This document shows, one piece after another, positions 9,076-58,630 of a DNA stretch of 64,000 nt (positions are counted from its first letter, which is position 1; each line of letters starts with the position of its first letter). Source of the DNA: Rhea pennata (lineage: Eukaryota; Chordata; Aves; Rheiformes; Rheidae); the NCBI RefSeq assembly GCF_028389875.1, contig NC_084664.1, positions 113,529,466-113,593,465 on the forward strand, given 5' to 3'. A program made the translations under genes and the position numbers. The notes beneath the pieces are model-generated. The model worked only from the letters and a program-made list of their open reading frames with translations, had not been told where the DNA came from and made no database searches.

Positions 9076-23508
<14,433 letters not shown>

Positions 23509-25112
23509 GCCAACAATCTATGTAACATGCACAAATCTGCCAAATGTAAAAGACTTGCAAAGAATTCCTGATGTCTTTAAGGAATCAAAGGAAAGAAAAT
23601 CTTCGCTACTTTGCATGCTTTTAATGGCAAACTGGAATTTTGTAATACAGTTGCACAAAACCACTTTTGAAGTGTTATAATCTAATTTACCAATGATGTG
23701 ATTTTTTTTTCTTTTTCCCGACTTATCTCGGGGTCCAAAGGAAGCTTAGTGAAAATACAGAATGGTAAAACGAGTATTGGTGTGAACAAAAGCAGCAAAA
23801 CCAATGTTTCATATCCTTTATTTTCCCAGCATTTAATAATCTTTCTGCTAAAGAGGGAATTGTCTGGAATTGCAAGTGATCTTGAGGTAGGACATTTTTA
23901 AAGCAGAGGAACTTTATGGGACCAAACAATTCCATTCCAGTTCTGTAAGACTTCCTGCATTCAAAAGTACATGAGTATTTTTCCCTTAGAGGTGGTACAA
24001 CCCTGTTGATGCATAGTCTTGATCTTCACGCTTCCTCTTGCATAGACTTAATTAGGGTAGGCAGGTTAAAAGAGAAATTGGAACAGTGTGAGACAAACTT
24101 TGATCTAAATAGTAGACCTCAATAGCGAAATTAGAGAGCATAATGCACTGTGTTAATACATGTTATTAATGTAACTGGAAAATAGCATCAGAGTTTTCTT
24201 TTTTTCTTTCTGCATAGCTAATTAAGAATAATGAAGGTAACTAGAAAATGAGGTAATATTTTATAAAGTTACGCTGATAAAGTATGATGATATTTGAACT
24301 TGAAACTATAATAAAATTGGGGTAGGGTGGAAATCCCTTAATATTCTTATCTCCATCTCACAAAGAGCTTTTGTATGCGAGAACTACCTGAACAAAGCTC
24401 ACCGTGAAAGCAAGACTGAAGCTGATAAATGGCCGCTTTTAGTCCATTTTCAGACACAGATTTGGTACTGTTATATGTGGCTTTTATATTGTTAATAAGG
24501 GTGGGTGCCACAAATGTAAACTGTCACTAGTTCAGGGATTTAGTTGCACTTTTGCTTTTCTTGACTATTAAGACACTCTTACACACAGTTTCTCTTCTCA
24601 CTTTCGCCCTTCCCGTAGAATTATTTAACTAAAAGTAAACAGAAGAAAATGTGAAAGTTTAAAAACTAAAGGGATAAAGTATATTTAATGTTGACCGAAT
24701 ATAGTGACAATGAACTTTTGCTGGCATTCAGCACAGCTTATACAACATCTAGATTTATTTTCTTCCGCTGCTGACATATCGAGCAATAACATCATGTCTT
24801 CTATTCAACAATTTGCATGAGGTTTTTGAATTTCTGATCAAGCTTGTATAATTTAATTTTGAAACACTAAACTCATACTTACCTGGTGGGTTGAAATTAA
24901 TATTACTCTTGTAAAGCTATCCAACAAGCGGATTTCAGAAAAGTTGGTAATATAGTTCCGGTACTAAACCTGACCTTTTCTTCATGGATTTACACTACAT
25001 TGAATCCAACTACCAAATGGATCTGTATAAGACCAGTGCCATCATTTCCATTTTCCCTCATTATCCCTTATCACCTGTATAGCTGTGGTTATCAAATTTT
25101 AAAAGGGCTTTA

Positions 25113-25115
<3 letters not shown>

Positions 25116-25146
<31 letters not shown>
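25116..25146. repeat. Poly-A tract of about 31 bp in the YES1 3' UTR
   Basis: Genomic A-run inside the presumed 3' UTR, not preceded by a close AATAAA. It would cause internal oligo-dT priming and a false apparent 3' end. Confidence 0.9.
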
Positions 25147-25147
<1 letters not shown>

Positions 25148-25568
25148 CCAAAAAATTTGAATTTTAATTTTTCTAAATATTTTAAAATGAATAACACAAT
25201 CATATGAGTTTATGTATTAATACAGCTATAACAAAGAATGCCAAAAAATGACACTGGCATTGTTTGGATTTTAATTACTGAATGGAACAATTCATTGTAG
25301 TAACACTTGTATAGTAAAGGAATAAAACACTAACTTAATGAACGTGTTCATTGTAAATGGTTGTGTATTATAAAACTTCCCCAAAAGAGATTGTATGTTT
25401 ATGAAAATTTATTTGTGTTTCACCTCAAAACCTTGATGTGGTTCTTACCCTAACAGAGTTTAAAATTCACATTCACCTTTTTTATATAAATAGTAATAAG
25501 TTTAATTATGTAACTAAGTATTTTTATAAAGTATGGCATTGTTGAACTGTTTTGCAGAATTGGTTCAA

Positions 25569-25574
25569 AATAAA
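25569..25574 (+). promoter_or_regulatory. YES1: Candidate YES1 poly(A) signal AATAAA
   Basis: AATAAA followed by 'tttctccttgattgtctctg', a T/G-rich downstream element. It lies about 2.06 kb after the stop codon. Weaker alternatives are at 24310 and 25321. Confidence 0.5.
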
Positions 25575-28500
25575 TTTCTCCTTGATTGTCTCTGCTTATT
25601 TTAAAAAAAAGAAAAGGGGAAACAAAAACAGAGTAACCTTCTTGGGGAGGGGAGAAGGGAGGGAATAAAAGGGGAAATTGAACTTTGAAGCGACAGCTAC
25701 CTTGAGGTGTATGCTTTTCTCTGTAAACTGTTTTAATGTACTTTCATAAAAGATGCTGAGTTCATGGTGTGTTATAAACTATTGCTGTGAAAGGAAGACT
25801 TTTTCTAGAGCAGTTCAGAAGTCCTTGGCAAGAGCTGGCTAAAACAATTCTGTCTAGGCTTAAAATTGACCTTGGATGGACAGACGGACAGACTTGGCAT
25901 TCTTGGGACAAAAATTCCAAAGTAGACTCTCAGTTGGTGATCACTGCTGCACCGTAGGCAAATACACTTCCTGTTTCTTACTTATCTGGCATTAGCAGTC
26001 ACTGTTGATTTCTGTGCAATTTTCAGGGAATTTCATAAATTTGTTCTTGTGATAGTGGATATTTTTTCTCAATTACGTTGAATGTTACCTATCTCAATGA
26101 CCAGTACTACTCAAATTCCACATTCTGAGGTGTATATTCAGTGCCATTGTAGATTAAGCAGCTAGTACTGTCAACATACTGTTTGAGTTTCAATAATAAC
26201 TAATAGAGCACTACAAGAGTTCTTACAGAAGCTATGAACTGCAAAGTTTACTGTATTTTTAATAGTTCCTGTAATGTAATTAATGTTTTGCTGTTTCTAA
26301 TGACAACAACACTGTAATATTTCTAGTAATCTGTACTCTCCCTGTTCTCCATCAGACCTTGTCATACCCATTTTCTTGTGGTAGGGCTGCAGATTGTTTC
26401 TGTCATGCATTGTTTCAAGATGTAGTATTTGAAAAATATTTTCATATGATTTTTGAGTAAATATCCAAACATAGAAGTGTGTATGATCCTACTGTTTCGA
26501 TGAAATACATCTTATTTCAGCATAAAGCATCAGAAAAAGAATCTTATGTGTTCTTAGCCTTGAAAGCATTGAATTTCATCATTCATTACATTTATGACTA
26601 GCTCTTACCTCTGAAAATGAGCCTTGGAAGGGTAATTGAGGGGTGGGAGGAGGTGTCTCATAACTTGATGATGGGTAGAAACAAGACAGAAAATTATTCT
26701 TACCCTCATTCTTCCAAGTTACTGGCAATTCTGAAATATGATCTACACCATATTGAGAAACCACAACTGTGGAATGAATATAAACCTAACAATCTAATAA
26801 TGAGCTCCAAACTCTTGTTATTTATTTCAATCTGTTTAATCCAATAAAATTTTGTTCTTTTCTGTGAACGTGCCATAGATGTTTGTACCAACTTTCCCTC
26901 AACATGTAAGACTGCTGCAGAGCTATAGAGTCATGTTAGATATAAACCCCAAAGACCCATGCTTAATCTAAGCAGCGTGTTGTAAACAGCAGAGTCAAAT
27001 TCCTACACCCAGCTACGGAATTTAGGGCTAAATTTGAGTGATTGATTTGGGAACCAAAATCAGGTCCAGGTAGATAATTGCTAAAGCTCCAAATTGCACT
27101 TCATACATTCCCTGCCTGTCTGTTGTCTTGCAGTAGGAACTTTGACTAAGACTCCTTGTGAAGATACCTGGAGGTGCAGGTGTCTTCCAGCCCTGCATCT
27201 TGCTCCTACTTCAGCCTGATGGACATGGAGGAACTGAGCTTCATCAGCCTCCTGGGCCCAGTGGGAGACTTGTGGTCGATGCAGGAGTGAGAATCCTTGT
27301 GTGTGCCTCTAGCCACCACCTTTTTCAGACAGGATGGGAAGAGATGGTACAGGGGAATGGACATACCTACCTCTGATACAGCAGCCTCAAGCAGAAAACC
27401 TGGGCTCTGAGCTAGTCTCCAGGATTGCCATTACATCTTACACAGGTGATTGTTAAGGGTGAAAAAGATGTAGTTACGTGTGCAAAACCAAATGCAGGAC
27501 TTCATTCACAGCCACAGGCATTAAGCATTCACTCTAGAGCAGGATTCCTTTTACTCTTGCTTTCTGTCTTCTCTTAGGACATTTATGAGGAGATTAGCTG
27601 GGAAAATATCAATGGCATCCCATCTCCTCCCTTAGCATAGGGGAGGGAAAAGGAGAGCTTGAGAGTGAAGGATGGAGGTGAGAAGCTGGGATGCTACTTT
27701 GAGCACTTACAGGAAAGAGGGAAGCAGGTTGAGGGCTGTAAAGCAAAGATAGCAGGGATCGTCTGTTTTCTTTGTCATGTTTTAGAAAAGAAGTTGAAAC
27801 AGGCAGGCAAAGGAAGCGAGGAGCATCCACTTCCTTGTGCACAAAAATGGGTCAGTGGAAATGGAGCAAAGCTGCAGAGAAACGTTCCTTCTGTTCTCTG
27901 TGATGGTTCTGTATCTGCTCAGCTCGCCCTGACTGGTTCCTAGCTGAGCCCCTGAATATTAGCTGGGAAAACCCAATATGAGAGCAGAGCAGAAAATTTT
28001 TTGCCCTGTAAATGAGTGAACCTTGATCAGTTCTTTGAAAAACTGATACAGAGGGCCTAACCAGAGAGATACTGGTTCCTGGAGACCACACTGACAGGGT
28101 TGTTTGCCTTTGCAGGTTAACCCCAGAGCGATGATGTTACAGACACTCTGGCAAGGAACTTAGCATTTCTTCCCTAGTGGCACTATGTGGATGTAGGATT
28201 TGGGATTAGGTTTCCCTCCTCATGCATGTGTACTGAATGCTTAGGGACCTAAAGCAGAGTTCAGGAATCCCCTGTGGGACCCATGCTCTTCACTGGACCT
28301 AGTCTTTGAGCTTATCTTTCATGTCAGTTTTGCATGCAAATACTTGTTTTTTGTGTATTACACTTTGGTTATTCATTTTTAACATTCTTTTTTAATTTAA
28401 AGTCATATTTTTGTTAAATTGCAATAACTACTGTTGTTGAGAGGATAAAAGTATTTATAGCATTATGTACTTTGAGAACATGGTCCATCTTATCTGAATA

Positions 28501-29550
28501 TTTCACTTATTTTAAATGGGTAGAAACATATACTGGCCCTTTTTCTGCTTTTGATTTGTTCTTCTTAAAGGAGAAGGGAGAGTTACCTAATTAAACTTAG
28601 CAGGGCCTGAGGAATAGCCTGGTTATTTAAAAGAGAAACCTGAACACAAGGTTGTTGATGAATCAGTCACGTACCAACACTGAAGCTAACTGCTGTGAAA
28701 GCATTCCTTCTCTTATGAAAAAGCTGCCCGCAGTAGGAGCACTCGACCTCTCTTGTGTGTGCCCTGCTGCTAGGTTATTAAGCCTCTAGCTGAGACCACT
28801 GATACGTACATACTATGGCATGGATAGGTCAGTGCATCTTACATTTGATCCTGAAAATCCATCCTGAGCATGCTAACAATTAGGCTTTTTTCCTTGCTGC
28901 ATCTGCTATTCATTCAATACCCAGCATCTACTCACAACTGGGGCAGTCTTCCAGGAGCTCAGTGGCTGATGACCCTTCCCTCTAATGTCTGGAAGCACCA
29001 CAGTTATATTTTCTAGATAAACAAGGATTTCTGCTCTTGCAAACAGAGGAAAGAATAAATCTCAGTTTCAATCTGACTTTTATGAAAAAAATAGCATGAA
29101 TAAGGAAAACATCTAATAACTTGACTGCTTCATCATGAGAACAGTGAGGATGGTTCCCTGCTCCTCCGCAGACTGTGGGATATACCCAACAAGGAGATGC
29201 TGAAGGTGTGTTGTCAAAAAGTGACATTGCAGCCCCTGCTTGGTCCTGGCAAGGAGGCTGAGCCTGTGAATTGCCTCCAAAGTCTTTTTGAAGAGCTCCC
29301 AAGAAAAGGCAAGAGAAACTGTTCACATGTGTGAGTGGAAAATGGCTCCTAAATGACTTACATCTCTTACTGTCCACACCACCTTTCTCTACCTTTCTAG
29401 GCAAGATGTTTATCATTCACTGCGATTGACTGGCTTTTATTTCTCCATTTTGTGGCTGTGTCATAACAGCATGAACATGTATTAGAATTCACAGAATTAA
29501 AGATTAGCAGCTTTTAGCAACTTTGTGTACCATTGCTTTTTTTTCCCTCT

Positions 29551-29553
<3 letters not shown>

Positions 29554-29583
<30 letters not shown>
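29554..29583. repeat. Poly-T homopolymer, about 30 bp
   Basis: T run followed directly by 'aacag', so it looks like a strong polypyrimidine tract and acceptor on the plus strand; no exon follows that I can identify. Confidence 0.9.
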
Positions 29584-29587
<4 letters not shown>

Positions 29588-31198
29588 GGAGGTGACTGGC
29601 AAAATGAGAAGCTCTAATACAGCAAGGTCAGATCCATATCACTTTCACTGAAGTACCCTCTTCACGTCTGGAATGGCTTTCATATTGGTTTATGAATAGC
29701 ATAGATTTATGCTCTTTCTTTTGTACTAAAGGACTGCAAGTACAATAGAAATTGTTTCAGTATTTACGTTTTAATTTAGTGCTGTTTTGTTAAGGCCCTG
29801 GATTTACTTAAAAGGAGATATTTATGGAAAATTACTGAAAAGCCTATGGGAATTCTCTGCTGGCTTTCTGGTGACCTTCACAGGGAAATGCCCAACCTGG
29901 AAGCAATTTGACATTCTGGATAGTCGTGTAAGAGCAAGAATTCCCTGTAGCACTGCATCAAAATAGTGCATTTAATCTTCCTGCACCACTCGGCAAAAGA
30001 CAGCCACTTGCAAGGAGAGGGTTTTTTCACGTGAAACCAAAGTTCAATCAATAGCTTCACCAGGTTTAAGGTTATAATAAGTAGATGACTAAAAAGCTAA
30101 GCATAATCTCTGGCACCACTGTCATTAGAATGGCCTCAGCCTATTCTGACTGTCCTAAGTGTTTTGAAGAGCAAGGGTACGGGACCTTAGCAACAGATAT
30201 GCCCCTTTTCAGTTGAACTGATCCCTAAGGGGACTAACAAGGAATGACACACTCTGCAGCTTGGGGATGACAAATGGCGTTCAAAAAGGTAGTGAGAAAT
30301 ATATCCACTTCGGCAAGCCAGCCTGGTTTGGGAAAATGCTGTTAGATTATCAGCAGCGCAGCACATCCCTCTTTTGTCCACCCCACACAGCCAATTCAGT
30401 CTTCTGCCAGGCAATGGACAGAAATCTACTGCTATGCTACTACCGTCTTCAGGGTTTCCAAGGCATCTGCCATCTCACTCAACAGTCATTCTTACCTAAC
30501 GTCTAGCACTTCTCACTCTCAAACCCTTCACAAATTAGGTCAGTTTGATAATCTCCTGATGGGAATCAAGGCAAGGGGGGAGTAGGTGCCTCACGTCATC
30601 CAGAATAAAGTTGGAGACAGCAATAGCTAGGGTTGGTCTGCTAAGAATTACCTTCTGGTGGGCAGCTTTTAACATCTGCCAACTTGGACTCCTCGTCTTG
30701 AAGTTGCAGAGGTCACTTCCTAAGACATGCTTGCTGTAATTTTGCATTATCCACCACAGTGCACACCTGGATAAAACTGGTGGATCCAGTGTAACAATTC
30801 CAGGTGCCTCCACAAAGCTAATATACAATTGTTCTTTGCAGACATCATGGAGCTTGACCTGGGAGACTCTGCCAGCTGCTTGCATTGGCCTGGCTCAGGT
30901 ACTGCTGCGGCTCAGCTCACCTGCTACCCAGATAACCTATGTGTGGCAAGTGCTGGTTGTCCTGTTGGCACAACTTCCAGTGCAATGTTGGTCCTGGGCC
31001 TCAGCGCCTTTGCCTCCAGGACCAAGTTCTGCAAAGCCCCAAGGAGCTCACATGCAGCCTCACTGGCACCTGTGCAAGTCCCTGAGGCCTGAGCTGACAC
31101 AAAGGTGAGCAAGTGGCCTTGCACCATGGGAGACCCATGCCTTCAGCACACTCCTTATGATCTAAGATCACGTCTTTGAGGGAGTATTTGATTTTACC

Positions 31199-31262
31199 AT
31201 GATATCATTGGATTATAGGATCATTCCGGTAGGAAGGGACCTGTGGAGGTCTTTTGTACCCC
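31199..31262 (-). mobile_element. CR1 LINE 3'-tail fragment, minus strand
   Basis: Reads as the reverse complement of the CR1 3' end: an octamer-like tail (gattatagga) followed by 'ggtaggaagggacctgtgg'. Only about 65 bp are recognisable. Confidence 0.7.
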
Positions 31263-31649
31263 CTGGTAAGTGGGTCCTGAGCTGTCATGGCTTGCAGCCG
31301 GTGAGGTGGCCTGTTTCAGTGATGCTGGTAGCTGGGCACATCTCTTCAAATGCTGGAGCACCCTCCTTCCCAAGTGCTGATGGGGGGGGGAGAAGGAAAA
31401 GAAGGCAGTGGAGCTCACAGCAGCCAGGCCCAGCACTAATGACAGTCACTGCAGCCCACACAACACCCTGATCCTGACTACTCCAAAGCCAGCGTGGTGG
31501 TGGAGACCAACGACTATGCCAGGCTCAGAAGCTATGAGCTGACATTACCCTGGGCAGAGGCAAGGAAGTTGGAAAGTTGTTACCCTGCCCAAAATGAAGG
31601 AGGAATCCCCTGGTCCACACCTGATACTGCTCCTGCATCTTGCAAAGGA

Positions 31650-31790
31650 ACTGCATTTAGCTCAGTTAGTTAGAGTGTGGTACTGCTAATGCCAAGGTTA
31701 CGGGTTCAATCCCCATATGGGCTATGCTGAGGGTTGGACTAGATGATCTCCAGAGGTTCCTTCCAACCTTACCATTCTATGATTTAAATT
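31650..31790 (+). mobile_element. tRNA-Ile-derived SINE with CR1-like tail (TguSINE1 type)
   Basis: The head matches a tRNA-Ile gene: A box in 'ttagctcagttagttagag', 'gtggtactgctaatgccaag' around the anticodon arm, B box 'gggttcaatcc' at about 31701. The tail from about 31725 is the CR1 3' end (gggttggactagatgatctc, ccttccaacc, ending attctatgat), the part that the CR1 reverse transcriptase recognises. This structure fits CR1-mobilised SINEs described from songbirds. It sits inside the ENOSF1 pseudogene between two exon remnants. Confidence 0.85.
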
Positions 31791-32739
31791 CAGCGCGGAG
31801 CCATGTGTAAAGGGGTTACAGGTGTCAGCATGATCTAGGTGGCTTGACACCAGAAGTTAAATTAAAGCTATTCACCCACTTCCCACCACTCCCATACACC
31901 AGTAAATCTCTTCTCTGAGTTGTATCTGCAACCCCACTCTGTGCTGTGTTTATTCCTATGTTAAACATGAGTTTCCCTCCAAGCAGGCATGAACACACAT
32001 GCTCCTTTCCCCTGCCTTGCAGACAGCGGGCCAGTTTGCAAGATCAGAATCACACACATGCTGAAGGAGCGCTCTGGAGCTGGCCCAAAGTGCTCAGCCG
32101 CTTTAAGCTACAGCAACTATATTTCTTGGGCAAGGTGGGGAACATTGTACAAAAATGTGTTCCTTAATTGCACAGCAGGCTTTGTGTCTGTTTTTATTAG
32201 GTAAAGCAATTTGTCATGAAAGGATACAGCTGAGATAGCGTTCTGCTTGCAAGGCTTTGCAGCAAAAGATCTAGTTTCTCTGTAGTTGTCTTTGGTTCTT
32301 TATAGTACCAGATTTATCTACTCTTGTCCTCCTTGGTAATTAACACTTTCTGTATAAAGGCAGAGCACATTGGCTGCAGGGCCAATGACACGGGCTGGTC
32401 ACTTGCCACAGAGACACAGTGTGAACTGGGAAATGTGGTCCTCTGCCCACCATTAAACCCAGTCTCCCAGATCAATAGTACTCTAAGGAATAAATACATA
32501 AGAACATGCAACTTCTTTTATTTTTTTTCTGTGATCGGAGCAAAGTAAATGAGTTTTCTAAATACTTGGTCTGTTTTTATTTATGTAAGCATCGTCTTGT
32601 TTATACAGAACTCATCTGTACAGTCACTTATTACCTGTTCCGTTCATCAGCTTAGGTTTCTGCGCAGGAGTCAAGGACTTGATGATACCATGCCTCTTTC
32701 TCCCTTGATCCACCTCTGAAATTGTTTCTTACAGAAATA

Positions 32740-32768
32740 TCTTTTTATTTTATTTTATTTTATTTTAC
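32740..32768. repeat. (TTTTA)n microsatellite
   Basis: About five copies of a TTTTA pentamer in an ENOSF1 pseudogene intron. Confidence 0.85.
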
Positions 32769-35700
32769 TTAGCAATCTGGCAAGCATATACTCAGTTATT
32801 TTAAGTTTCTTTAAGGATTCACCATTATCTTTAGTTACGCTAAGATCTGAGTCTGTGTATCACCCGGTCTGATATTTGCAGCTTCAGACCTGGTCACCTA
32901 AACTGCTGAACACCCTTCAGTCTTCATGAGAGGGAATGCTCGAGGTACAACCTGCCTGGACTCCTGAATGCCCTCAGTCACTGTAGTATGTGATTCATCA
33001 CTTCCAAGAAAGGTGGGATGGGAAGTTGTCCCCGTAGTGCAGATAGGAAGAGCAGAGGAACAGAGACACAGACAAATAAAGTTCCTTGCCCAGAAGCAAT
33101 CAAAAATGTGTTTATGAAACTGATGTTCAGACACTTGTTTCTCAGATCATAAGCAAAGACCCTGAACAGGGGATATCTCAGAGAATTAGACTCTCAGTCT
33201 CCCGTTCAGATTTCTCTTACAAATCTTACAGATTTCTCTCTCTATTCCTTGCTGCTGAAAAAAATGATGGTTGGCGTTCAACTTTCGACTGTGTCTGTCC
33301 TTTTTTTTTGACCCTCTACAGCTTGCTGGACAAGTGTTCATGTAAGGATATGCTTTCCTGATTTGCATGGGTTGTATCCTATGGTGTTCCCTGGAATTTA
33401 TAATGAAATAAATGAACGGAGGTATGTGGGACTGGAAAAAACAGTTCTGCTGCTGCCCTGAATCTCAGAGACATAAAACAGCAGGACTACAACTGCCTCT
33501 CTATCATTCCCAGAAACTGAGTCCTTTATTAGGAAATGAGATCTTGAATGTGACTGCAAGTACCAACCTACTCTGGGAGACAGAGCAGTTGCCTGCAGGG
33601 ATGTTATGTAAAGGCTCTCCCATTTAAAGAAACACTGTCTTCCTCAGAGGAGAGGAGATCTGAAGCCTCTGCCTCTGACATAGTGCTGGGCTATTGATAT
33701 AGAGCTTACAGTGGGGATGGAGGGCAGAGCTGTTTCATTTTCCTCTGAAACAGGAGGTGATAAATAGCAACTCTTCACCTAGAAAGCCTTTTAAAGCTAT
33801 TAAATTTTTGGAGGAATGGCTCAGCACTTGGCAATAGAAAAATGAGGTGAAACATGACCATACAACTAGATGGTGGCCACCCAGATCTGGGTGCAAAGTG
33901 AACGGTTCCATGATGACACAATTCATGGACTGTCAGAAAAGTCTACTTCTCTCAACATCAGCTGAAGGACGAGCCCACAGTAATTCTGTTACAGGCATTT
34001 TGCTGTAAGGAGGCAGTAAATGCCAGTATTCTTTGCAGTTTGTGCTGTCAAGGCTCTCTGCTCACATGGTCAATAGGCACATGGAAGAAACTGTCAACAA
34101 CTTTGGAGGCTTCTGCAGAGAGCTCACCAGCAATGAGCAGCTCTGCTGGGTAAGACATGTAAGGGGGAAGGCTGTTGTGAAATAAATGGATGGTAACAAA
34201 CATATAAGAGTGCATTCTCACAAAACATGGCATTTCCTATTTCAATTTCTATTTCTATTTCAACTTCTTGGAAATCGAGAACTCATTTAGTGCTAAGGGA
34301 AGCCTGTGAGAAAATGACTTGTCAGAGAATTCCAGATGGGTAGTTGATAGAAATGGCACATTTCAGCAGTTACTTCTTTTATAATTTCTAACCAATACAA
34401 ATTCCTCTTTTTTTTTCAGTGCCAATGACTCTTCCCCTTGCTATGTTAACAAGGATTTCTTTTAATATTTAGGGAACAAAATATCATTTACAAGAAATTT
34501 AGACACTGGTGAGTATCAGACCACGGATGATGCTGGTGCATGTATATTTGTTTGCTCAATAGATTTGACCAGTGAGGGGTGCTATGCGCTTGGCTACAGG
34601 TGCTGTCCTGAAGGCTCTGTGGGATCTGTGGGCCAAGCAAGAGGGAAAAATAATGCTCATAAGACCTGAATGTAAGAACACTCAATTCATCCAGAGAGAT
34701 TTGCTGCTCCTGGCTCTCCTCTTTTGCACATCTGGTCTTGATTCTGCAGTAATATATACATATGCTTAGCTTTAAAATACCAGATAAAGTACAGGCACCA
34801 CTGAGTTCTTGGAGACTGTGCACATGCTTAGCTTTTGCAGGATGGAAAACTGTAACAACTGCACATTGCTTAGCAGTGAAGTTGACCTGAACATTTCAGA
34901 ATCATTTTGTGGTAGCTCTAATATTTCTGAAAGAAGATTTTTGACCGGCCCTGCTTATCAGCTGTTTCTGTGTACGCTTTTCTCTTGATGTCGTCTTTCT
35001 TATTTGTAGATTTTAGTCTGAGATTTTAATTTTTTAACCACTTCCCTATCATAAATGCTACTGATCCAGGAGCCAACAGTATATACTCACACATTGCTGG
35101 ATATTAAAAATAACTTATTCGCACAGAAATTGGCTTTTTGGTCTTTGAGCATAAAACCATTGCTATGGTGGAGTCCTAGTTCAGAACTTCAGACTGAGGA
35201 TAGATAGAGGCTACAGGAGGTTAGATAATATCAGATACAACTTTGCTGTGGCTGTATCTTGATGGGCACAGTCATAAGTGCTTGATCTCTGTAGACCTTC
35301 TGGTTTAATGGGACAGAAGCAGCAAAGCACTGTAGCTAGCCGTGGAGCTAGCCACATGCACACTCATACACCATGCACCTCAGGGCGTCCCACCACGCTA
35401 TCCTGACTTCACAGCTGGCAGGGGAGAGCCAGCTTCCACCCCACCAGCTTGGGTCTGCCAGCCTCCGCCGTCTCTCACTTTTGCTCCATCACATTGAGCC
35501 TTCAGGTATCCTTCTGTGTGCAACCAGCACCCTTCAGCTTGCCAAATCCAAGAGCACTAGGATCTTGAAAAGCACATCATCAAAAAATTCACAGCACAGA
35601 TATCTTAAATGTATGAAAGGATATTTTGCATAGTGATAGGTTTCAGCAAGGGGTTAGACCAGCATTTCAGATAGCTAGTATGAAGCTCACTTTTTCTTTT

Positions 35701-38700
35701 TAGTAGAAAAGTCATGCCAGCAATACTGCATCTGTAATGAAACCAAGGTAAGAGGGATGCTCCAGTCTTAATTATTTTAATGGAAAAGTGTTTAATGTTC
35801 TTGGTTGGGGTTGAGAACTACAGTACTTTAGTGTCAGTAATTAATTCTGAGTGTCAGATGAAAACACATTTGCACATTCTGACACTTCTTCAAGAAGCAA
35901 AAACCATGTTCATGTTACCTCCTTGATAGCATCCACCTGGTTCCAATTATTTAATTCATTTTGTTTTCCAGCCTCTGTGGAAGTTACTAGTGGATACGGT
36001 AAGGAAATCTTGTTATACTTCCAATATAAAGGTAATTTGACATTCTTCTTTCTGACTGTATTAAAAGAGAACATGATTTAGCTTGTGTCCAGATTCTGGG
36101 GGAATTCTGTTTAATTTTAAGATGCTCTAAAAGAACCTATTTTTTTCTGGGAGCGGAAGCGTGCCAACAGGAATGCACCTCTAAGTTAATTTGACATCTG
36201 GAATGTGAGACATGGCTTTCCCATTTAATTTTTCACTCCTTCCTGGATAGAATTTAAAAGAAAGCTGAAAAGAGCTTATTATCTAGCACTTACAGCCACA
36301 AACTAAGCACATGCTTGCATCTTTACCAGGGCAACAAAGGCTCAGGATGAGGTGGTTGGTGGGGAGCATCTAGAACATGTGCTATGTCTCAGTTCCCTAT
36401 TCACTTAAGAGAAATGGAGAAAAGATTGACAGTCATGGCTCATGCAGCTAGCATTAATTAATCTTTTGTCATCTTATTGTTTTATTATGCCATGCCTTTT
36501 ATTCATGGCTTGTTCTTGAATCAGGAGCCCAAGCAATTGCTGTCCTGCACAAAGTTCAAGTATATTACTGATGTGCTAACAGAAGCAGCAGCTTATGTCA
36601 GCCTTCTTTCCCTCAAAGCTGGACTCTCCTCCTTCCTAATCCTTGAGTTGCCTCATCAGCTTCAATGGGAACTCAGGAATACACCCTCGGTCCATGAGAC
36701 TAAAATGGGTCAGAGAGGCAACCACAGTGATGAAAGCTGGAGGAAGAAGGAAAATAGTTATTCACTGTAATTTCATATTCATGTTTATTCCCTTACAGAA
36801 ATACTCCAAAATGGCCTGCTTGGAAAAAAAGAAAGGGTGAGTTTAAACTGATGTGTACCTGATTAAAAGTATTACTCTGTAAGTCTTAGAAAATGGGAAA
36901 GGGACCGTGTGAGATGAAGCATTTTTTTTGCCAGCGTCTTCTCATCCATCTCCAGGACTGCAAAGTTGGGTGTTTGGTTTATGCTGTATTGGTGACTTTT
37001 TGCCACATAACTGTTGTGTGTCAGGCTAGCAAGGAGATTGTGCTGTTTTCTTCCAAGGATTTTTCTGAGTTGTAATTCTTTTTCATTAAAATACCTAGGG
37101 AGAAGAGAGGGGTGTTTATTCAGCAAAACTGATCTCCTTGATTAAAATTAGGGCTTTTAAGGAAGAAAGAAGTCAAAACACCTCCACTGTCAGTTTCCAC
37201 AAAGAATGGTCTTTGACAGACTATTTAACAAAATAATCTTTTGTTGACTAAAAAAATAGCCTGACTTGAGAAAATCTTTATGTTTCAGAAAAGCAAATGT
37301 TAAAGCATGGATATCCTGCTTATACAACATCCTGTGCCTGGCTATCCTACTCAGACCAACTGTTAAAACAAGTTTGAATGTTTGATCTCTCAAATAGCAA
37401 GATCTTAAATGGTTTGTACAGTGGGGAAATGTTAACAGACAATGATCAATGCTCAGTGTTTGCTCCTAAATGCTTAAAAGTTTTGCTGGACTGAGTAAAA
37501 AAGTAACACTGTAGATACATTTGAGGAGTGGAAAGCAAGTCCAGTGCCATAATTCTCCCAGTAAGGCAGAGGACTACAGTCTTGTCTATCACCAAGGATA
37601 TGCATCCCCAAGGTATATGAGTATTGAGAACAAGATATTAAGACAGCAAAGGAATTATATTTATATGGGCATGTCATATCTAACAGAGCTTTTGCATGGT
37701 TGTAGCAGTGTCAAATTAAATGAGGAGCGTATGCACATAGCGATGCTCAGAAAAGTGATATGAATTAATCAAAAGTGTCATCCTTGAGAGCATTAGTGAA
37801 AACACATCAAATCTGCACCTGAATGGCTACGTTCAGAAGCCCAGTGCCTGTAACCTGCAGTAACGTCATCTCCGAGGAGTAAGGATGTCTCAGCTAACGT
37901 GAATCTCAGAAGTTTGATAATTTGGTTGATTAACCAACCAACTTAATAAGTTGGTTTCTTCTGGAACATCTGGTTGCCTTAGCTTTGAGGGATACTTTGC
38001 AGCTGGCAACAGCAGGAGAAGTGCCCTCAGTTTCATTTGGAGAGTAGCATCTTTCCTGCCAGAGAAAGTTGCCTGTGCAATGGACTTGGTTTTTTGTGAA
38101 ATACTGTGAAAGCCTTTAACAGTTTATGGGTGTCAGATTTAGCTAATGTAACTGGGGTTTACATTCTAGGAGATATATTCCTTAGTGAATCTAGAAGTAG
38201 CATTGCTGAGTCATGACATTTTCATATTTGGATTAGAAAAAGTTATCATATGCTACAGTTCAGCTAGGCTGAGGAGTTTCCTTCTCTTTTTTCAGCTGGA
38301 TGTTATTCATGTATCTCATCTCATTTTTCTGATGAGTTTCTGCTGTCTCTTAGGAAGAAACTGAAAATTTATTCTGATTTTGAAAATGTGTAGCTTAGTA
38401 TTATTAAAGATGCATTGTAGGAGAGTTATTTGGAGATTTATGATAAGTGTAACTTTACCTGCAGTTATGTACAGAGGTTTTGGAAGAGGGCTGGACAAGG
38501 TACAGTAAATACTTGTCTTGACTGTTGCTCTTCTGTGTTTTATGCTTGGCTCTTTTATGTCTATAATATGGACAGTCGTGTCTTTGCTTCTGTATACCTC
38601 TTGGACACGTCCCCTCCTTCTGCTGCATAATACTGCATTGCAGGAAAAGAGCAATGGTATGGCAAAGCTGAGGGCTGATGGCAAATTAAAATAACTGTTT

Positions 38701-39057
38701 CCACTGATTTATGAAAAAAACATTTGCTGTTTTATTTTCACAGTAGGATGAAGCCTGCTTGTAAGGGAAGAGAAGTAATAAAAAACAATTCTTTCCATAA
38801 GAATGTGATGCTGAAATTGTAAAATCTAGTTAATATATTTCTATCTACTGATGCATTAATCATTCAGAAGTGATCTATATCTTGTTCCAAATGAGCATCT
38901 AGGTTCAAAGTAAAGGTGGGTGCAGATCTGTAGGATGATATTCGTAGATGCAGATTTATTCGAAAAATGATTGTCCCTGACAAAACAATGATGAATATCA
39001 CTTTCTACTACTGTATGAAGTCATTTTATATAAAACTCGAAGATGAAAGTTCTCTCG

Positions 39058-39728
39058 TTATGTACATTTATTGGCAAAGAGTTCCCTTCCTTCCTGAAAT
39101 CCTGAATAATGATGCCAATAAATGTTGACATGCACCAGCAAAGAGTGATGTACGCAACCCAGTATATCTATAACTAAGAATTTCACCCTATATTTCATGT
39201 GCCAGAACTTCCATTCAAGTCTGGAGGGAATCCCTCTTGCAGCACTGCCTTCTAAAAGATTTAGGGTGCCTTTTATATCCAGGAAGGCTTCTAGAGGAAC
39301 ACTTGTTAATATTTTTTCTCCAGTGTCTGGCCAAAGGTAAACAGAAAAACAAAAATTTCTAGCTAAATTCATTTGAATGAAGAGAAATAATTCAATGCAA
39401 GTCATGTATTCAGATTTGGAAATGTCTGCTTGGCTTCATTAACTACTATATGCCGGATCCTTTGCCCCATGTTTTCCATGACAGGCCATGGTTGTCCATC
39501 TGCTCTGGGTGCTGCAGTGTAGCATGGGACTTCCATAGGTGCCATATATCCTGAAATACCAATCAGCAACTCTGTGAACACAGGATGGCAGGGACCTAAG
39601 AACCTGAAAAGGAGCCATAGTGTCATTTCCAGATCAAAATTAATAATTTTCAGATGTTCCATTTTTTGAAGGATTGGGAGGAGGTGTAATTTTCCTTCTG
39701 TTAGAGTGAACTGCTGCTTGTGAAACAT
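39058..39728 (-). other. Two abutting unidentified ORFs on the minus strand
   Basis: An ORF of 108 codons (39728-39402) and one of 115 codons (39405-39058) overlap by four bases, keeping about 670 bp almost free of stops across two frames. They lie in an intron of the ENOSF1 pseudogene. I recognise no family, signal peptide or domain. Chance ORFs or the remnant of an inserted element are both possible; no function is claimed. Confidence 0.25.
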
Positions 39729-41156
39729 GTCTGTCTTAAATACTATGTTTTCTGTTACGAAGATTTTCTGCTGAAAATTTCAGACAATCATGTTCATGTG
39801 TAGGGTGTTTTACTCCAGTATATGCTGACAAAACATTTTGGTTCCCTCAGAAGACCCTTCTGTCCTTGTTACAGCTCCTGATCTGTCTTGTTCAAACCCA
39901 GCTTGGGTATTGCTATAGAAATTGCAAGCTCCTAGCATAAGCATGGCCAAAAAAACATATGATTCAGACAGAATCCCAGCTTTTAATTTCCTTTCAATTT
40001 CCTGGATTTTCATCAGTTCATGTCAAATTTTCAGTTCCTTTTATTAGAGTCTGACAGGAAAAAGTCAATAGAATCCTGAAGCACATTTGATTTTTATTTT
40101 CCTTACCTCCAGATGCTGGATGCAAACCAATGATGGGAAATAAAGGAAGCAGTAGAGTTAGTCACTGAACTAGCTGAACTTCAACCCTTATGGATTGAGA
40201 AGCCAACTTCTTCAGATGGTATTTTGGGACATGCAGCCATTGCAGAGGTTGGAGGGCTTCCCTCCTCCCCCCCCCAATAATGACATAAAATCCATAAAAC
40301 TACAATGTATTGTTTATACTATTCCTTGACTACTCAGAGTTCAGGTTGAATTAGTTATTCAGAGTCTCATTGAATATATTTGTTACAGGACCTTGACACA
40401 CATTCTGCACCCATATTCCCTTAAGTATAAAGGAATAGTTTGCACCTAAAAAATATGCAAAAGGATTGTCATGCCTGCATGAGGAAGACAGCCAACAATT
40501 AGTTTAAAATGTGCATGGACTTCTTCTAAAACATGTAAGTTAATGTTTCAATGAAGTTGGAAGTATATTGGTTCAGAGATTGCACTCACAACATGACGTA
40601 CTTAGCAGCACTGTTAAAGCCCCATGTGTACCGTATGTGCATTTCTTTGCTGCTCCACACACCTTGCTCTATAATTCTTTACATGTTTGTGTAGCAGAAA
40701 AAGCAGAAAAATATCAATAATTTTTTTTATTGTATGTGTAATGTTTTCTATAAAATGAGTAGCAAACGTTATGCTGAATCAATTGTTATTCCATCCTTTA
40801 TATTATCGAGTAACTTTATTAGGAATTAAAAACCAGAAGCAAATCTTGAATGTTTACTATTTCTTTGTAGGCCTTAGCACTGCTAGGAATTGGTGTGACA
40901 ACAGGAGAAAATGTGAGTATATGCTTAAGTGTTTTTTGGCTTTTTCCTTATTACTGTTTATTTAATGCAACTACTACCTAACCTCTGGGAGCTGGTGCCA
41001 AAACTCTCTTGCATTTCTCACTCGGGATAAATACTACAAACGAAAAATATTTGATAGCTGTTTCAGCTATTCCCTAACAGGGGTGCCTGCCTTCTCTCCC
41101 TGATTCTTTTTTTCCCCATACGTATTTTCTGTGAACCACCTAGGAATACCTACTGT

Positions 41157-41180
41157 TTATTTATTTATTTATTTTTATTA
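41157..41180. repeat. (TTTA)n microsatellite
   Basis: Five or six TTTA units in a pseudogene intron. Confidence 0.8.
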
Positions 41181-41709
41181 GGAGAGTAACTGCTAACATT
41201 TTGTATTCTCTGAATAGTAATACAAACAAGTGCATCCATGGCTATGCTTGCCCCATATAACAGCTAGAGAAGGAAAACACGAAGAATAAGTCCATGCAAC
41301 TCAATAGAACATGCTGTGGCTACGAGAGATAACTTAAAAGTCACCTGGAAGGTCTGTGCAGCACAAGTCTGGACACTATGGTCTGTACAGAGCTGCAGGG
41401 CTCCTGACCTGCGGTATCTCCTTTAGCTCGAGGGTAATTAGCACAGCTCCCAGTTTGCTCTGTGGCTCTGGAATCGATGTGTTTTGCTCAGTACTGCCCT
41501 GTGCGTGCAGATATCACCTCCCTGCAACAACTTGACGGAGTGTTTATTAGCATGAAAAGGTTTCTGGCTCTTATTCCCATATCACCGCTATCTGTGCTAC
41601 ATTAACTCAGCTGTAAAGATTACAGTCTCTGAAGATTATTCTGTTAGCAAGTTGCAGTTTCTGACAGGGATCTGTATAGTGTTCCTCTGAGAAATATTCA
41701 CAAATAAAC

Positions 41710-42670
41710 AACTCAGACATTAGAAACAGGAAGATCTTTCTGTTCAGGTCTCAGCTCAGTCATTACTAGAGGCCCAGTCCTTGAGTGTACTCGATATTCA
41801 GCACTTCTGGAGAAACTACAGACTCTGTCTTCAGCTGATGTTACCTGGACAGACTCAAGTCTCTTGAAGACCCCAAAGAAATCTAACCTGGTCAGCACAA
41901 TACATAGCTCTGACTCGTGCTCACTGCTCGGAACAGATGCAATGGTTGAGATTTTTCCACCAGCTGCCATATTCCCCATTTGGGTTCTCTGCCTGGTTTT
42001 GCTCAAGGGAGGCCTATCACCACAGAGGGCTTTAACAGATGGGCCCTGTGGCCTCAAACTGACTCCCAGGTGCCCACTCCTCAGGCACCTGGGGCCACTG
42101 GTCAGGTTCTGGATCAACGCGGGAAGGCTATGGCCAGGCATAGCTGAAGACAGGCATGCCTGGGACATAGCTCCAGTCAAGACAGTGGGCCCTGGGCTGA
42201 GCTGAAATGGAGCTCCTGTGCCCAGCCAGGTCCTGCGTTGGTTGGGGCCCATAAGGCCTGCCAGTGCCCTGAGGCCCTGAGAGCAGTCTCCCCTCCTGCA
42301 AGATGCATGCTCACACCTTATAGAGCTGTGAGCGCTCAGACGTGGAGGGATTTAGTTGCTGCGGGGGACCCAGAGTCGGGATAGGACAGGGCAGGATGGT
42401 TCCACCACCACCATGGTGGAGAGACAGGTCCAAGGTCAAGCTGGGAACACCAGCGAGCGAGTCAGGGTCAGGATAAGGCTCACTGATGGTAACCAGGGTC
42501 AAGCACAGTCCAGTGATCAGCAGGCAAGTCCACGGTAATGAGACCAGCCAAGGTCAGGCCAAGAAATCATCCATTTACCCATGGCCAGGCATAGGCACAG
42601 CTGCAAGGCCAGGTTGCACCTACGGCACAGCTCAGGCAGGGACTGAAGGTCCAGTGGGGAGCATGTAGTC
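41710..42670. repeat. GC-rich block of unknown origin with degenerate GGTCA-containing repeat
   Basis: About 1 kb clearly richer in G and C than the surrounding intron. The minus strand is open for 179 codons (42252-41713), but the product is low-complexity and unlike any family I know. From 42432 to 42556 the string (A/G)GGTCA recurs at 42432, 42464, 42495 and 42550, with a partial copy between the last two, suggesting a decayed minisatellite of about 31 bp. An LTR or other inserted element is possible, but I see no terminal repeats. Confidence 0.4.
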
Positions 42671-45074
42671 CCAGGTGAGACTGGCGAGAGTAAGACCTAT
42701 TAGTGCACTTGGGGCTCTTGTGGGTTTTTTTCAGAGGGAAGATGCTCTGCTCCATTTTTAGATGTTATATATACAGCTATTTTATAAGGTTTTTAAGTAA
42801 CCTTTCCTTTCTGCCAACAAAACTCCTTATTAGCATTAGTAGAAAGTCATTGCCATCAGCTGTATTTAAATACTTTTCCCATGAAATACTTGTAATGAGT
42901 CCAAAGACCCATTTCCAGAATTACTTCCTGGATACATCATCAGTAGTGAGGTGTCAATAGATAGAACAGTACCTTTTAGAATACCAGCCTACAACCCAAA
43001 GTAAGTTGTTTTATATTGCACCCATCTTCCTGCCAAGTCTTGACACTAAATCTACAAAGCCAACCAATGTGAACTAACAAACTCTCAGTTCTCTGGAGCA
43101 ACTGGAGAGAAATACTACATTAGCATAGTTTCTCTGCTGCCAGTTTCTCATGCCAAGCCCTGCTATCTACACATATTTCATAGCCGAGAGTTTCTTGCTT
43201 TCAGCTGTTGTCTGCCAGTAGATAGTACACTCAGTCTGGGGGATGGGGCATTGTATAATGAGCATCTATTAGGATAAATTTGAATTATCCATTAGAATAG
43301 CCCTGCTTTATAACATGCCAAATCCTGAATGCAGGCTTTATTTTAGGATTTGTAAAAACTTTTTTCTTCTTTTCACCATAACCTCTAAGAACCACATAGC
43401 CATCTAATGTATTTATCCACAGCACTCCCCTGTGAATAAGGTAAGCAGTGTTATCCTTACTTTAGACATGAAAAACTGATGTGAGACCTGAACTAATTGA
43501 ACAACTTATCTGAAATCTGAACAGAAAATCTGTAGCACAGCTGGAAATGCAATCCTGCATTCCAAGCATCTTGTCTACAAAGCCATCCCTCATCTGGCTG
43601 TACTGTTCTCCAGGAGAAGGAATGATAGCAAAAGACAGTAGAATCACTGCTATATTCACTTCAGCTGCCTCAAAATAGGAATAGTTGTTCACATGCATAG
43701 ACATCCCAAAGGTACAGTGCTGAGTGAGCATGCTTAACTGTAGTCAGGACAGTCCAGTTCTCTGTGCCACCTGAAGACCTTCCCTGCTAGCAAACACGGA
43801 GGCTGGTTAGGTAACCAGAAGAGGTGAGTTGGCTTGTAAAGCAACCTCACTCCTAAAAAGACTGTGAGGCAAAATGCTCTGAAAGTTTGAGCAGTGCAGG
43901 AAGTTTCCGGTCCCAGACAACTGCCACATCAGCTTTACCTAACACTTCTGCTCCAAAAGTGAGCCATGTTTGCTCAGGTTAAGCCCACTATTGTTGTTCC
44001 TAGACTGGAAGAACCATTTTCTCTTGGTATTTTTGCTTCACTTTCACTTATGTGGGTCAACATCCATTTAAGGGGTAGTAATTTCTAAACTCACTCCAAG
44101 AAGACTGGGCTCTTATGCACACGGTAATTTTTTTTTCAGTGTGCCTCTGTTCATCCACACTTAGGTCACACATGACCCTCTTAGTAGTTTAACTTGTGTA
44201 GGCTAATTCTTTTAATACTGGCAGCATCCTTGAGCTTCTCCTCATACAAATTCTCATGAAGTATTTCCTATAAATAATTAAAATAATTCAGATTTATTGA
44301 GAAACACAAGAGAGACATTGTACAAATGTTTTGATATTAGTTGCCAGCAGCTCTTGTAGAGACTTACTTCTAGAGACTTCAGGTCTTAACTTTTTATTTT
44401 TCCCTTACAGTATCAAAACAGAGTGATATTTAAACAGCTCCTACAAGTTAAGGCCCTGACTTATCTCCAAATTGACAGTGGCAGACTGGGAAGTGTGAAT
44501 GAAAAGCTGTCTGTGCTGCTGATGACCAAAAGGTACCAGAGAAAGGCTCTGAAAAATGCTACATGAGTGAGAAAATCTTTTTCTCTCTCTCTTCCCCCCC
44601 AAATTAGTCTGATTAGTTTCTTCATGCTTTTAAGTTCTTTCTAGGCATAAGTTAGTATGCACTGCTGTATATTCGTTTGTTTGGTGTTGCGCTACAGGTG
44701 TGCACCAGAACACATTTGGTCTCTCAGTACTGGACACTGTCTTTCTCTAGTGTGAACTTGGAGGAGGGGGGGGGGAAGAGCTGCTCTGACTTTTTGTCAG
44801 GAGCATTGTTAAAATGCCATGAAAGAATGAAGACATCATTGATCTTAATCACTTTTAGTCATTTCCCTCATGTTCTTAACTTCAATGAAGTACAGGCGTT
44901 GTTCTGTTTTGTTTTCAGTTCCTGTTTGCCCTCATGCTGGGGGAACTGGCCTTGTGAATTAGTCCAGCACTTGAAAATTGTTGATTATATCTCAGTATCT
45001 GGAAGGCTTGAAGGTAGGTTAGTTATACAGAATATGGTATACTACCATAGCAATTGACTATGGTGATGGTCACC

Positions 45075-45098
45075 TTTTTTTTTTTTTTTTTTTTTTTT
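45075..45098. repeat. Poly-T homopolymer, about 24 bp
   Basis: T run just after the remnant exon at 44919-45017; no associated element recognised. Confidence 0.9.
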
Positions 45099-47560
45099 CT
45101 GATGTTGCTACATGGTGATTCCAGCATGCATTTGCCTTGTTATCCCAGTGGGCTACAAAGGGAAGTTCGAAATGTGGATTAGAGTCCAAGCAGGTAAAAG
45201 TGAACAGTCAGTAGCATTTTTGAAAAAGCTGCTTCAGAACTGGACTGTGTTCTGTCCTCAGATATTTCACAGGGATGTCACTAGAGTGGCAAACTCACCA
45301 CGCCAGATTAACAAACAGACTCTAGATTTTGATGGCAGATCAGGCGTTTGTCTCAAAATTCAGAAATAGTTCCTTCTCTTCTGACCTCTTACCTATCATG
45401 ACAACTCATACTCTCAGTGGTATTGAAGTGCGGCCAATTTTGCAACATTACGTAACACACGAAAATAATGTGGGGTATAAAAGTTTCTCTGAGAAGGTAG
45501 GACATTGAGGGAGTTAGTATCTAAGCAAAGTGGTAAGAAACTTATCTTTGTTAGCCGATTGAATTTTCTCTAGGAAGTAGGGGAAAAAAAGGTGATAGAA
45601 GTACGCATTTGGAGGCAGAATGACAGATGAGGAGAAACTCCACAAGGCCAAATTGTGAGCCAGAATAAGTGCAGCAGTCAGCAAGGCAAAATGTTATGGA
45701 TGTGCAGAGCTAGTAAGGAACCGAGCCTTTATTGCTACCTGTAGAGCTCCTCAAGTCACCAGCTGGCAAGCATGAGGGACGGCAAAATGCTGGGACAACT
45801 TGTTCATCAGGCAATAAGTCCAAGAATACCTTTCTTTCAATTGGCTCCTGTGTTCCTTAACCCGTAGGATCTAACAATGTCTCTAAATGTTTTGTTTAAA
45901 CTGTTGCTCTGAATCCAGTCAGCCTGCAGTCTTACTAGTCATCTTCGCCAGCAGTAATCTTGCCCTGCAAATTCCAGCTAATCTGAAGTGTTGTAAGAAG
46001 TGGTTTCCAGCAAAAAGAACTTAACTTGCTCCATGCAGGCACAAATGCAGGTAAATTTGCGACCTAATTTGTTTTCTTGTGCCTTAGAGGTCAGTAAATG
46101 CACACAAGAATCTTTAACTTACAGAAGTGCACACATGATAATAAGGTTGCTATCAACCTAAAGCTGAGAAATATCATTAATATAGATGGAATATCAGAAC
46201 TAGGTGACCTTAAAAAAACAGACTACTAGAGATGGGATGAAATTCACTGTAAGGAACATACGACCTGGCTTTTAGGTCTAATAACAAGAATATTTGCTAC
46301 TGCCTGTGAGTTCGGTATATCAAAGCAGACAAGACATGAGTTTGTTACTTAATTACATGTTGGCTCCTGGGCACCCATTTAATGCAACCTCAAGAAAAGA
46401 CAGGTTTTATCTTCCATGTATCAAGCAAGGCTCTGGTATGATCTCAGCTAAAACACCACTCTCATCATCTGTTAAAGGAAGATGAACTAAGGTACTGAGG
46501 AGAACCTGTCTAATAAGCAGTAACTTATTTACCTTTGATATAGAGGAGGTAGTAATAGTTTCATTCTGCAATTTTCTTGTGCTGGACTAAACACTGGAAC
46601 AACAACTTAAGTTTTATAAGTCCTACTGGTTATAATTTAGAATAAAATTTGTCTTCTAGGATTAATCGACTGAGTGCATTTTCAGTAATATCCAAGGACA
46701 GAAAAACATTAGTTCTACAGTAAAGGTTGATTGTTCTGTGTAAGGAGGTATAGAAAATTGTTGGCTGGGGTAGCATGGATTAGAGTGGTGCCTGAAGAGC
46801 ATCCTTTAGCTGTGACGTACTTGAGCTCCACTTTTTTTCTTCCAGGATGTGTGAATTTGTAGATCACTTTCATAAACACTTCAAATATCCTACTGTAATC
46901 AAGAATTCTTCCTACATGCCACCTTAGGTATGCTGTCTTATGGGTACACAAAGGAATGTACCTCCATCACAAACAATGACAGATTTTGAAAAATCTATAA
47001 AATATGTAACAAATTTTTCTAATGGTACTCAGTACACTTAAACTGGATGGTGGATACATTATTACACTAAACAAAGAAGTAGGCTTATTAATTATACCTT
47101 CTAAATGCAAAGTATAAAACTGAAAAGTGTTCTGAAAAGAGCAAAACCCTAGTCAGAATTTAGTCCTAGGAACGCCTCTTAGGTCTGTCTAATAGTTTGT
47201 GTTGCTGACTTACTTATCTACCAAACACATTAAGAGTGTGCCCTCAACATCTTTTATTTCTGTAACTCTAACCAGACAATAGGGTAAGACAGGGAGGTAT
47301 GACTCCCTCTGGCCTTTTCCGTAGGCTCAAAGGAGGATACAAATTCATACTCCAATCTTGAGCAGCAAAAGAAAATTGTTACCCAATTGCAAAATGTATC
47401 TTCACTTCCTACTCAGTGTCTAAAAAATATTCTGATCTGTAAAGGTGCTGGATATTCTACTGAAAAGAAAGAAAAATCTGCAAGAAACTATCATTTTCCA
47501 GAGGGAGGTCTGGCAGAATCATCTTTAAAGCCAAAAGGCAGAGCAGCATTGAATACTTAA

Positions 47561-47637: not shown

Positions 47638-47678
<41 letters not shown>

Positions 47679-49138: not shown

Positions 49139-58630
<9,492 letters not shown>

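What the first reader, a model, noticed from the sequence alone, without database searches (positions are those of the whole stretch)
31464..47560. ENOSF1 is a decayed unitary-type pseudogene between intact YES1 and TYMS
Thirteen exon remnants remain in order, with introns, in the ancestral position, but carry four in-frame stops, at least three frameshifts and several lost splice sites. Seen directly: the stops and shifts against the reading frame of each remnant. Known: ENOSF1 is the L-fuconate dehydratase-type enolase superfamily member next to TYMS. Inference: loss of the L-fucose/fuconate breakdown step in this lineage, unless another copy exists elsewhere.
Basis: partly seen in the sequence, partly recalled or inferred. 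Interest (0 to 1): 0.8.

Follow-up and report, generated by a model that had tools for sequence, protein, structure and literature searches.

The report
Decayed ENOSF1 gene in a bird
Between two other genes, this bird genome carries the crumbling remains of ENOSF1, an enzyme gene for breaking down the sugar L-fucose, and no second copy turned up; gene loss of this kind is ordinary, and ENOSF1 loss in birds had already been suspected.

Summary
Score 1144, against 137-168 in 5 of 5 shuffles and 162 antisense. There are four in-frame stops, four frameshifts, two splice donors without GT and no detectable first exon. Neighbouring TYMS aligns without stop or frameshift; YES1 was checked only by motifs.

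At 107 positions where at least 97.5% of 80 bacterial homologues agree, human ENOSF1 keeps 105 and the relic 87. Whole-genome searches found no second copy, so a unitary pseudogene is the best reading. Two rough clocks give about 0.08 neutral changes per site, some 25-45 million years at recalled avian rates.

Novelty is limited: ENOSF1 was reported undetectable in chicken and zebra finch (PMC1261261, PMC3197473), though a 2025 chicken study names it. A modest addition: the pathway's first enzyme, HSD17B14, is also undetected here and in a published chicken survey, while BDH2, FAA-hydrolase and fucose-salvage family genes match. ENOSF1 may have decayed because its pathway was cut upstream; that order is inference.

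The parts
9076..23508 (+). YES1 coding region (left neighbour)
   Evidence: 10 stop-to-stop stretches hold 23 of 26 recalled Src-family motifs, in order; not aligned end to end
31455..31567 (+). ENOSF1 remnant 1, aa 26-63; frameshift near 31545; weak donor at 31568
34032..34149 (+). ENOSF1 remnant 2, aa 64-103; frameshift near 34062 (a better acceptor ends at 34037)
34563..34649 (+). ENOSF1 remnant 3, aa 104-132; stop TGA at 34566; donor without GT at 34650
35972..35998 (+). ENOSF1 remnant 4, aa 133-141
36525..36596 (+). ENOSF1 remnant 5, aa 142-165; donor phase doubtful
36798..36836 (+). ENOSF1 remnant 6, aa 166-178
37288..37371 (+). ENOSF1 remnant 7, aa 179-206
38465..38499 (+). ENOSF1 remnant 8, aa 207-218
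38903..38990 (+). ENOSF1 remnant 9, aa 218-247 (KxK motif kept); stop TAG at 38931; donor without GT at 38991
40113..40247 (+). ENOSF1 remnant 10, aa 248-292; stop TGA at 40131
40871..40912 (+). ENOSF1 remnant 11, aa 293-306
44411..44532 (+). ENOSF1 remnant 12, aa 307-347, best kept (32/40 identical), no lesion inside; exon end ambiguous
44911..45017 (+). ENOSF1 remnant 13, aa 347-383; frameshift near 44951
46846..46927 (+). ENOSF1 remnant 14, aa 383-409; stop TAG at 46925, just before a GT
47441..47537 (+). ENOSF1 remnant 15, aa 410-442; frameshift near 47507, then a TAA short of the human C-terminus
49142..58618 (-). TYMS, 7 coding exons, no stop or frameshift (right neighbour, tail to tail)

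Best explanation
This is a unitary pseudogene of ENOSF1 (L-fuconate dehydratase, also called rTS), left in its ancestral place between YES1 and TYMS in a bird, probably a passerine. Shown here: orthology by order, orientation and sequence; multiple disabling lesions; no other copy detected in the assembly. Inferred: the gene lost selection tens of millions of years ago and has decayed about neutrally since. Most likely cause (inference, odds about one in three): the L-fucose degradation pathway had already lost its entry enzyme HSD17B14, so fuconate dehydratase had no substrate to work on; fucose salvage genes remained.
For: Spliced alignment score 1144 against 137-168 in 5 shuffles and 162 antisense. 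Four stops, four frameshifts, two donors without GT, exon 1 not found. TYMS in the same window aligns with 0 stops and 0 frameshifts under the same aligner. Identity to human 262/405 = 65% against 240/290 = 83% for TYMS and 71% reported for zebrafish against human ENOSF1 (PMC3197473, passage). At 107 positions with at least 97.5% agreement among 80 bacterial homologues human keeps 105, relic 87, Fisher p 5e-5; each bacterial protein keeps at least 97.0% in leave-one-out. Genome: 9 of 10 matches in the window, tenth E 3.84; PF13378 in one place only, this one. Cause: HSD17B14 best match 40% identity, 32.5 bits over 67 aa, whereas BDH2 gives 8 pieces at 56-86% in one place on C4; chicken marked '-' for hsd17b14 in PMC7064643 Table 1; PF07959 matches on C8 and C13.
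Against: The residues recalled as catalytic (K220, K222, D250, E276, E305, H355) all happen to be kept in the relic's reading, and remnant 12 has 32/40 identity and no lesion. Per-exon identity does not track human-Xanthomonas conservation (r 0.03; Spearman 0.22, p 0.43), so a strictly uniform decay is not shown. A 2025 chicken paper treats ENOSF1 as an expressed gene, so the cause cannot be an old avian HSD17B14 loss acting equally in every bird; mouse is listed with hsd17b14 but without ENOSF1, so ENOSF1 can be lost with HSD17B14 present. No reads, RNA or relatives could be examined.
Confidence: 0.92

Rival explanations
1. The relic is one of two copies: an intact ENOSF1 survives in sequence missing from the assembly (gap, W, or a germline-restricted chromosome), so no function was lost.
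For: The assembly may be incomplete; songbirds carry a germline-restricted chromosome (recalled).
Against: Relic sits at the ancestral place with introns; protein and Pfam searches of 1.27 Gb found nothing else. The same protein search picked up remnants as weak as 35% identity, so an intact exon set should have shown.
Confidence: 0.05
2. The stops and shifts are sequencing or assembly errors in a working gene.
For: No reads could be seen.
Against: Eight reading-frame lesions within about 1.2 kb of coding sequence, against none in the 290 aligned codons of TYMS nearby; the amino-acid replacements at 20 of 107 nearly invariant sites are substitutions spread over the gene, not the mark of base-call slips.
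Confidence: 0.01
3. The protein is dead but the locus still has an RNA role, for instance as a transcript antisense to the TYMS 3' end, as described for human ENOSF1.
For: Tail-to-tail order with TYMS is kept; last ENOSF1 remnant and TYMS stop codon are about 1.6 kb apart; plus-strand AATAAA or ATTAAA hexamers occur between them and beyond. Human antisense role: PMC13406643 and PMC1261261 (passages).
Against: No transcript data; exon 1 not found and no CpG-rich stretch at 26001-35000 (observed/expected at most 0.40), so no evident promoter; hexamers of this kind are common by chance.
Confidence: 0.05
4. ENOSF1 decayed for its own reasons (diet, redundancy, chance), unconnected with HSD17B14.
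For: Mouse lacks ENOSF1 (PMC3197473) yet has hsd17b14 (PMC7064643); chicken is listed with ENOSF1 in 2025 but without hsd17b14 in 2020.
Against: Both dedicated enzymes undetected in this one genome.
Confidence: 0.5

Closest known systems
Bird ENOSF1/rTS absence (PMC3197473, 2011; PMC1261261, 2005)
   Same: Same gene, not found in chicken or zebra finch; the 2011 paper says birds apparently lost it, the 2005 paper notes the TYMS-rTS pair is syntenic in vertebrates (passages and section 5 seen)
   Different: Those rest on failed database searches (the 2005 paper itself allows insufficient chicken data); here the dead locus itself is seen exon by exon
STK33 unitary pseudogene of neognath birds (PMC4509753, abstract and outline seen)
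   Same: Remnant exons with indels and premature stops at the original locus, no functional copy
   Different: Different gene; shared by 28 neognaths, whereas the extent of the present loss is unknown; there whole exons were deleted
ENOSF1 loss in rodents and others (PMC3197473 section 5)
   Same: Repeated loss or erosion of the same gene (mouse, pig and sheep without identifiable homologue)
   Different: Mammals, independent events

Membership tests
ENOSF1 orthologue (L-fuconate dehydratase, enolase superfamily) | Sequence match along the protein | tested here: met
   15 remnants covering aa 26-442, 262/405 identical over the counted stretches
ENOSF1 orthologue (L-fuconate dehydratase, enolase superfamily) | Place beside TYMS, tail to tail, same direction as YES1 | tested here: met
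   that the pair is a vertebrate synteny: PMC1261261, passage
Unitary pseudogene | Introns kept, ancestral position (not a retrocopy) | tested here: met
   14 gaps between 15 remnants, most with GT..AG or a nearby one
Unitary pseudogene | Disabling lesions in the reading frame | tested here: met
   4 stops, 4 frameshifts, 2 donors without GT
Unitary pseudogene | No functional copy elsewhere in the genome | tested here: met
   within the assembly of 180 contigs; PF02746 searches did not complete
Unitary pseudogene | Working orthologue in relatives and fixation in the species | not testable with these tools
   Genome has no relatives here; the literature on chicken conflicts
Processed pseudogene (retrocopy) | Intronless, at a new place | tested here: not met
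   Introns of about 0.2-3.5 kb between remnants, kept synteny

The most novel reading that the evidence does not exclude
Birds dismantled L-fucose degradation in order: the entry enzyme HSD17B14 went first, with a gene block missing from birds (its neighbour BCAT2 is reported absent in birds, PMC4290089; the neighbourhood is recalled), and ENOSF1, orphaned and no longer needed either as enzyme or as TYMS antisense partner, then decayed separately in several lineages, of which this is one caught at an intermediate stage.
Probability: 0.3. Interest if true: 0.45.

Novelty: new member of a known kind. Interest (0 to 1): 0.3.

Why it matters
It turns a reported absence of ENOSF1 in birds into a visible, datable relic with lesions that can be looked for in relatives, and offers a natural knockout for an enzyme whose physiological role PMC13406643 (passages) calls not yet fully elucidated and whose zebrafish knockdown is reported to harm embryos (PMC3197473, abstract passage). 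As gene loss it is ordinary.

Tried and rejected
Exon 1: probes from human and the Xanthomonas enzyme gave nothing beyond shuffles (one search failed on a wrong option). DP piece at 30455-30484 (4/10) dropped as chance; likewise a 17-residue 5' piece of the TYMS alignment (7/17). Per-exon identity against human-Xanthomonas identity gave no correlation. Pfam on six window translations: only remnant 12 gave MR_MLE_C, E 0.004, below the curated cut-off; the YES1 stretch gave no kinase match. No repeat families of 60 bases or more in 28000-50000. ARAGORN found no tRNA; the Rfam tRNA match is a SINE head. The two overlapping ORFs at 41708-42351 are single-copy DNA apart from one 93-base 74% match, without Pfam match: no gene claimed. 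Dating: neutral distance 0.085 (0.048-0.135) from conserved sites and 0.081 (0.022-0.206) from stops; a looser set (human = Xanthomonas, 157 of 206 kept) gave 0.094-0.122 and 29-64 million years; avian rates 1.9-3.3e-3 per site per million years are recalled.

Full report
What is there. The window lies at C2:113529466-113593465 of a 1.27 Gb genome in 180 contigs. It places 15 remnants in order on the + strand, 31455-47537, covering aa 26-442. The score is 1144; five shuffles of three-base blocks give 137-168 and the antisense strand 162. Plain tblastn agrees, with a best hit of 65.1 bits.

Lesions. In-frame stops stand at 34566 (TGA), 38931 (TAG), 40131 (TGA) and 46925 (TAG). Frameshifts lie near 31545, 34062, 44951 and 47507; the second and third are clear, the others lie in weakly matching stretches. 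Two donors lack GT (34650, 38991). Donors at 31568, 36597 and 44533 are doubtful, and several acceptors that the aligner marked as non-canonical have an AG within a few bases. Exon 1 is not found above chance in 23601-31600, and no CpG-rich stretch appears at 26001-35000.

Controls. The same aligner finds TYMS on the minus strand, 58618-49142, in seven exons with 240/290 residues identical to human, no stop and no frameshift (an extra 17-residue 5' piece was judged spurious). YES1 was tested only lightly: 23 of 26 recalled Src-family motifs occur in order in 10 open stretches at 8998-23508.

Is it really decayed? Identity of the relic to human is 262/405, 65%, below the 71% reported between zebrafish and human ENOSF1 (PMC3197473, passage). 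With 80 bacterial homologues, 107 positions inside the remnants show at least 97.5% agreement; human keeps 105 and the relic 87 (Fisher p 5e-5), while each bacterial protein keeps at least 97.0% when left out in turn. The 20 changed positions run from 36 to 391. Against a simple picture, the residues recalled as catalytic are kept, remnant 12 is 32/40 identical without a lesion, and per-exon identity shows no correlation with human-Xanthomonas identity (r 0.03).

Another copy? The human protein gives 10 matches in the whole genome at E up to 10; nine are these remnants and the tenth is E 3.84, 31% identity, on C1. The Pfam C-terminal domain PF13378 matches once, here, with a TGA inside. Searches with the N-terminal domain PF02746 did not complete. 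Sequence missing from the assembly cannot be excluded.

Age. Loss at the 107 sites gives a neutral distance of 0.085 (0.048-0.135); the four stops give 0.081 (0.022-0.206). With avian rates of 1.9-3.3e-3 per site per million years (recalled) the point estimates mean about 25-45 million years, the wider bounds of the first about 15-71. The looser site set gives 29-64. These are rough.

Which bird? A tRNA-Ile-like head with a CR1-like tail lies at 31657-31785; 40 copies were scored of 3802 candidates, and the consensus of 30 of them matches 19 of 20 bases of the TguSINE1 primer printed in PMC5729268 (passages). That paper places TguSINE1 in passerines other than New Zealand wrens. The copies were picked by similarity to the window's, so their low divergence (window copy 3/129) is biased.

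Pathway. PMC13406643 and PMC11293516 (passages) give HSD17B14 as L-fucose dehydrogenase, ENOSF1 as L-fuconate dehydratase, BDH2 as candidate for the next step and FAHD1 as suggested hydrolase. In this genome HSD17B14 has 19 matches, the best 40% identical over 67 residues at 32.5 bits, which looks like paralogues. BDH2 gives eight pieces at 56-86% identity in one 10-kb place on C4, one with a TAA inside its 56% match. PF01557 matches on C15 and C28, which member is FAHD1 not determined. PF07959 (fucose salvage) matches on C8 and C13. PMC7064643 Table 1 marks hsd17b14 absent in chicken and in spotted gar, present in 11 of 13 species (passage). PMC4290089 (one passage) says BCAT2 is absent in birds; its main text does not name HSD17B14, and that the two genes are neighbours in human is recalled. 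Absence of HSD17B14 here could still be an assembly gap.

What is known. PMC1261261 (passages) failed to find the gene in chicken and mouse; PMC3197473 (passages and section 5) found none in chicken or zebra finch and proposed loss in birds. PMC12586055 (one passage) lists ENOSF1 as a microRNA target in chicken, so at least its annotation treats the gene as present; this conflict is unresolved. Searches listed no paper describing an ENOSF1 relic in a bird; they cover openly licensed papers only and only their listings were seen, apart from the papers named. STK33 (PMC4509753, abstract and outline) is a close parallel of a unitary pseudogene in birds.

Verdict. A real unitary pseudogene, well supported; ordinary as a kind, with loss of this gene in birds already suspected. 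The bolder reading, ordered dismantling of fucose breakdown, is open and testable.

Noticed in passing
31657-31785: TguSINE1-like SINE (tRNA-Ile head, CR1-like tail) in the intron just after remnant 1; points to a passerine host.
   Followed up: partly
31200-31330 and 51078-51395: Stretches whose translation resembles one often seen beside CR1 elements in birds (resemblance recalled, not tested).
   Followed up: no
41708-42351: Overlapping open frames of 165 aa (+) and 212 aa (-) in the 3.5-kb gap between remnants 11 and 12; single-copy DNA apart from a 93-base 74% match on C12, no Pfam match.
   Followed up: partly
29554-29583 and 47639-47676: Pure runs of 30 T and 38 A on either side of the relic.
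   Followed up: no
G000 C1 (match at 200899716): Contig C1 exceeds 200 Mb, long for a passerine chromosome 1, which is recalled as split in many species; contig naming is unknown.
   Followed up: no
whole genome: No convincing HSD17B14 (L-fucose dehydrogenase) orthologue; only SDR-like matches of up to 40-51% over short stretches.
   Followed up: partly
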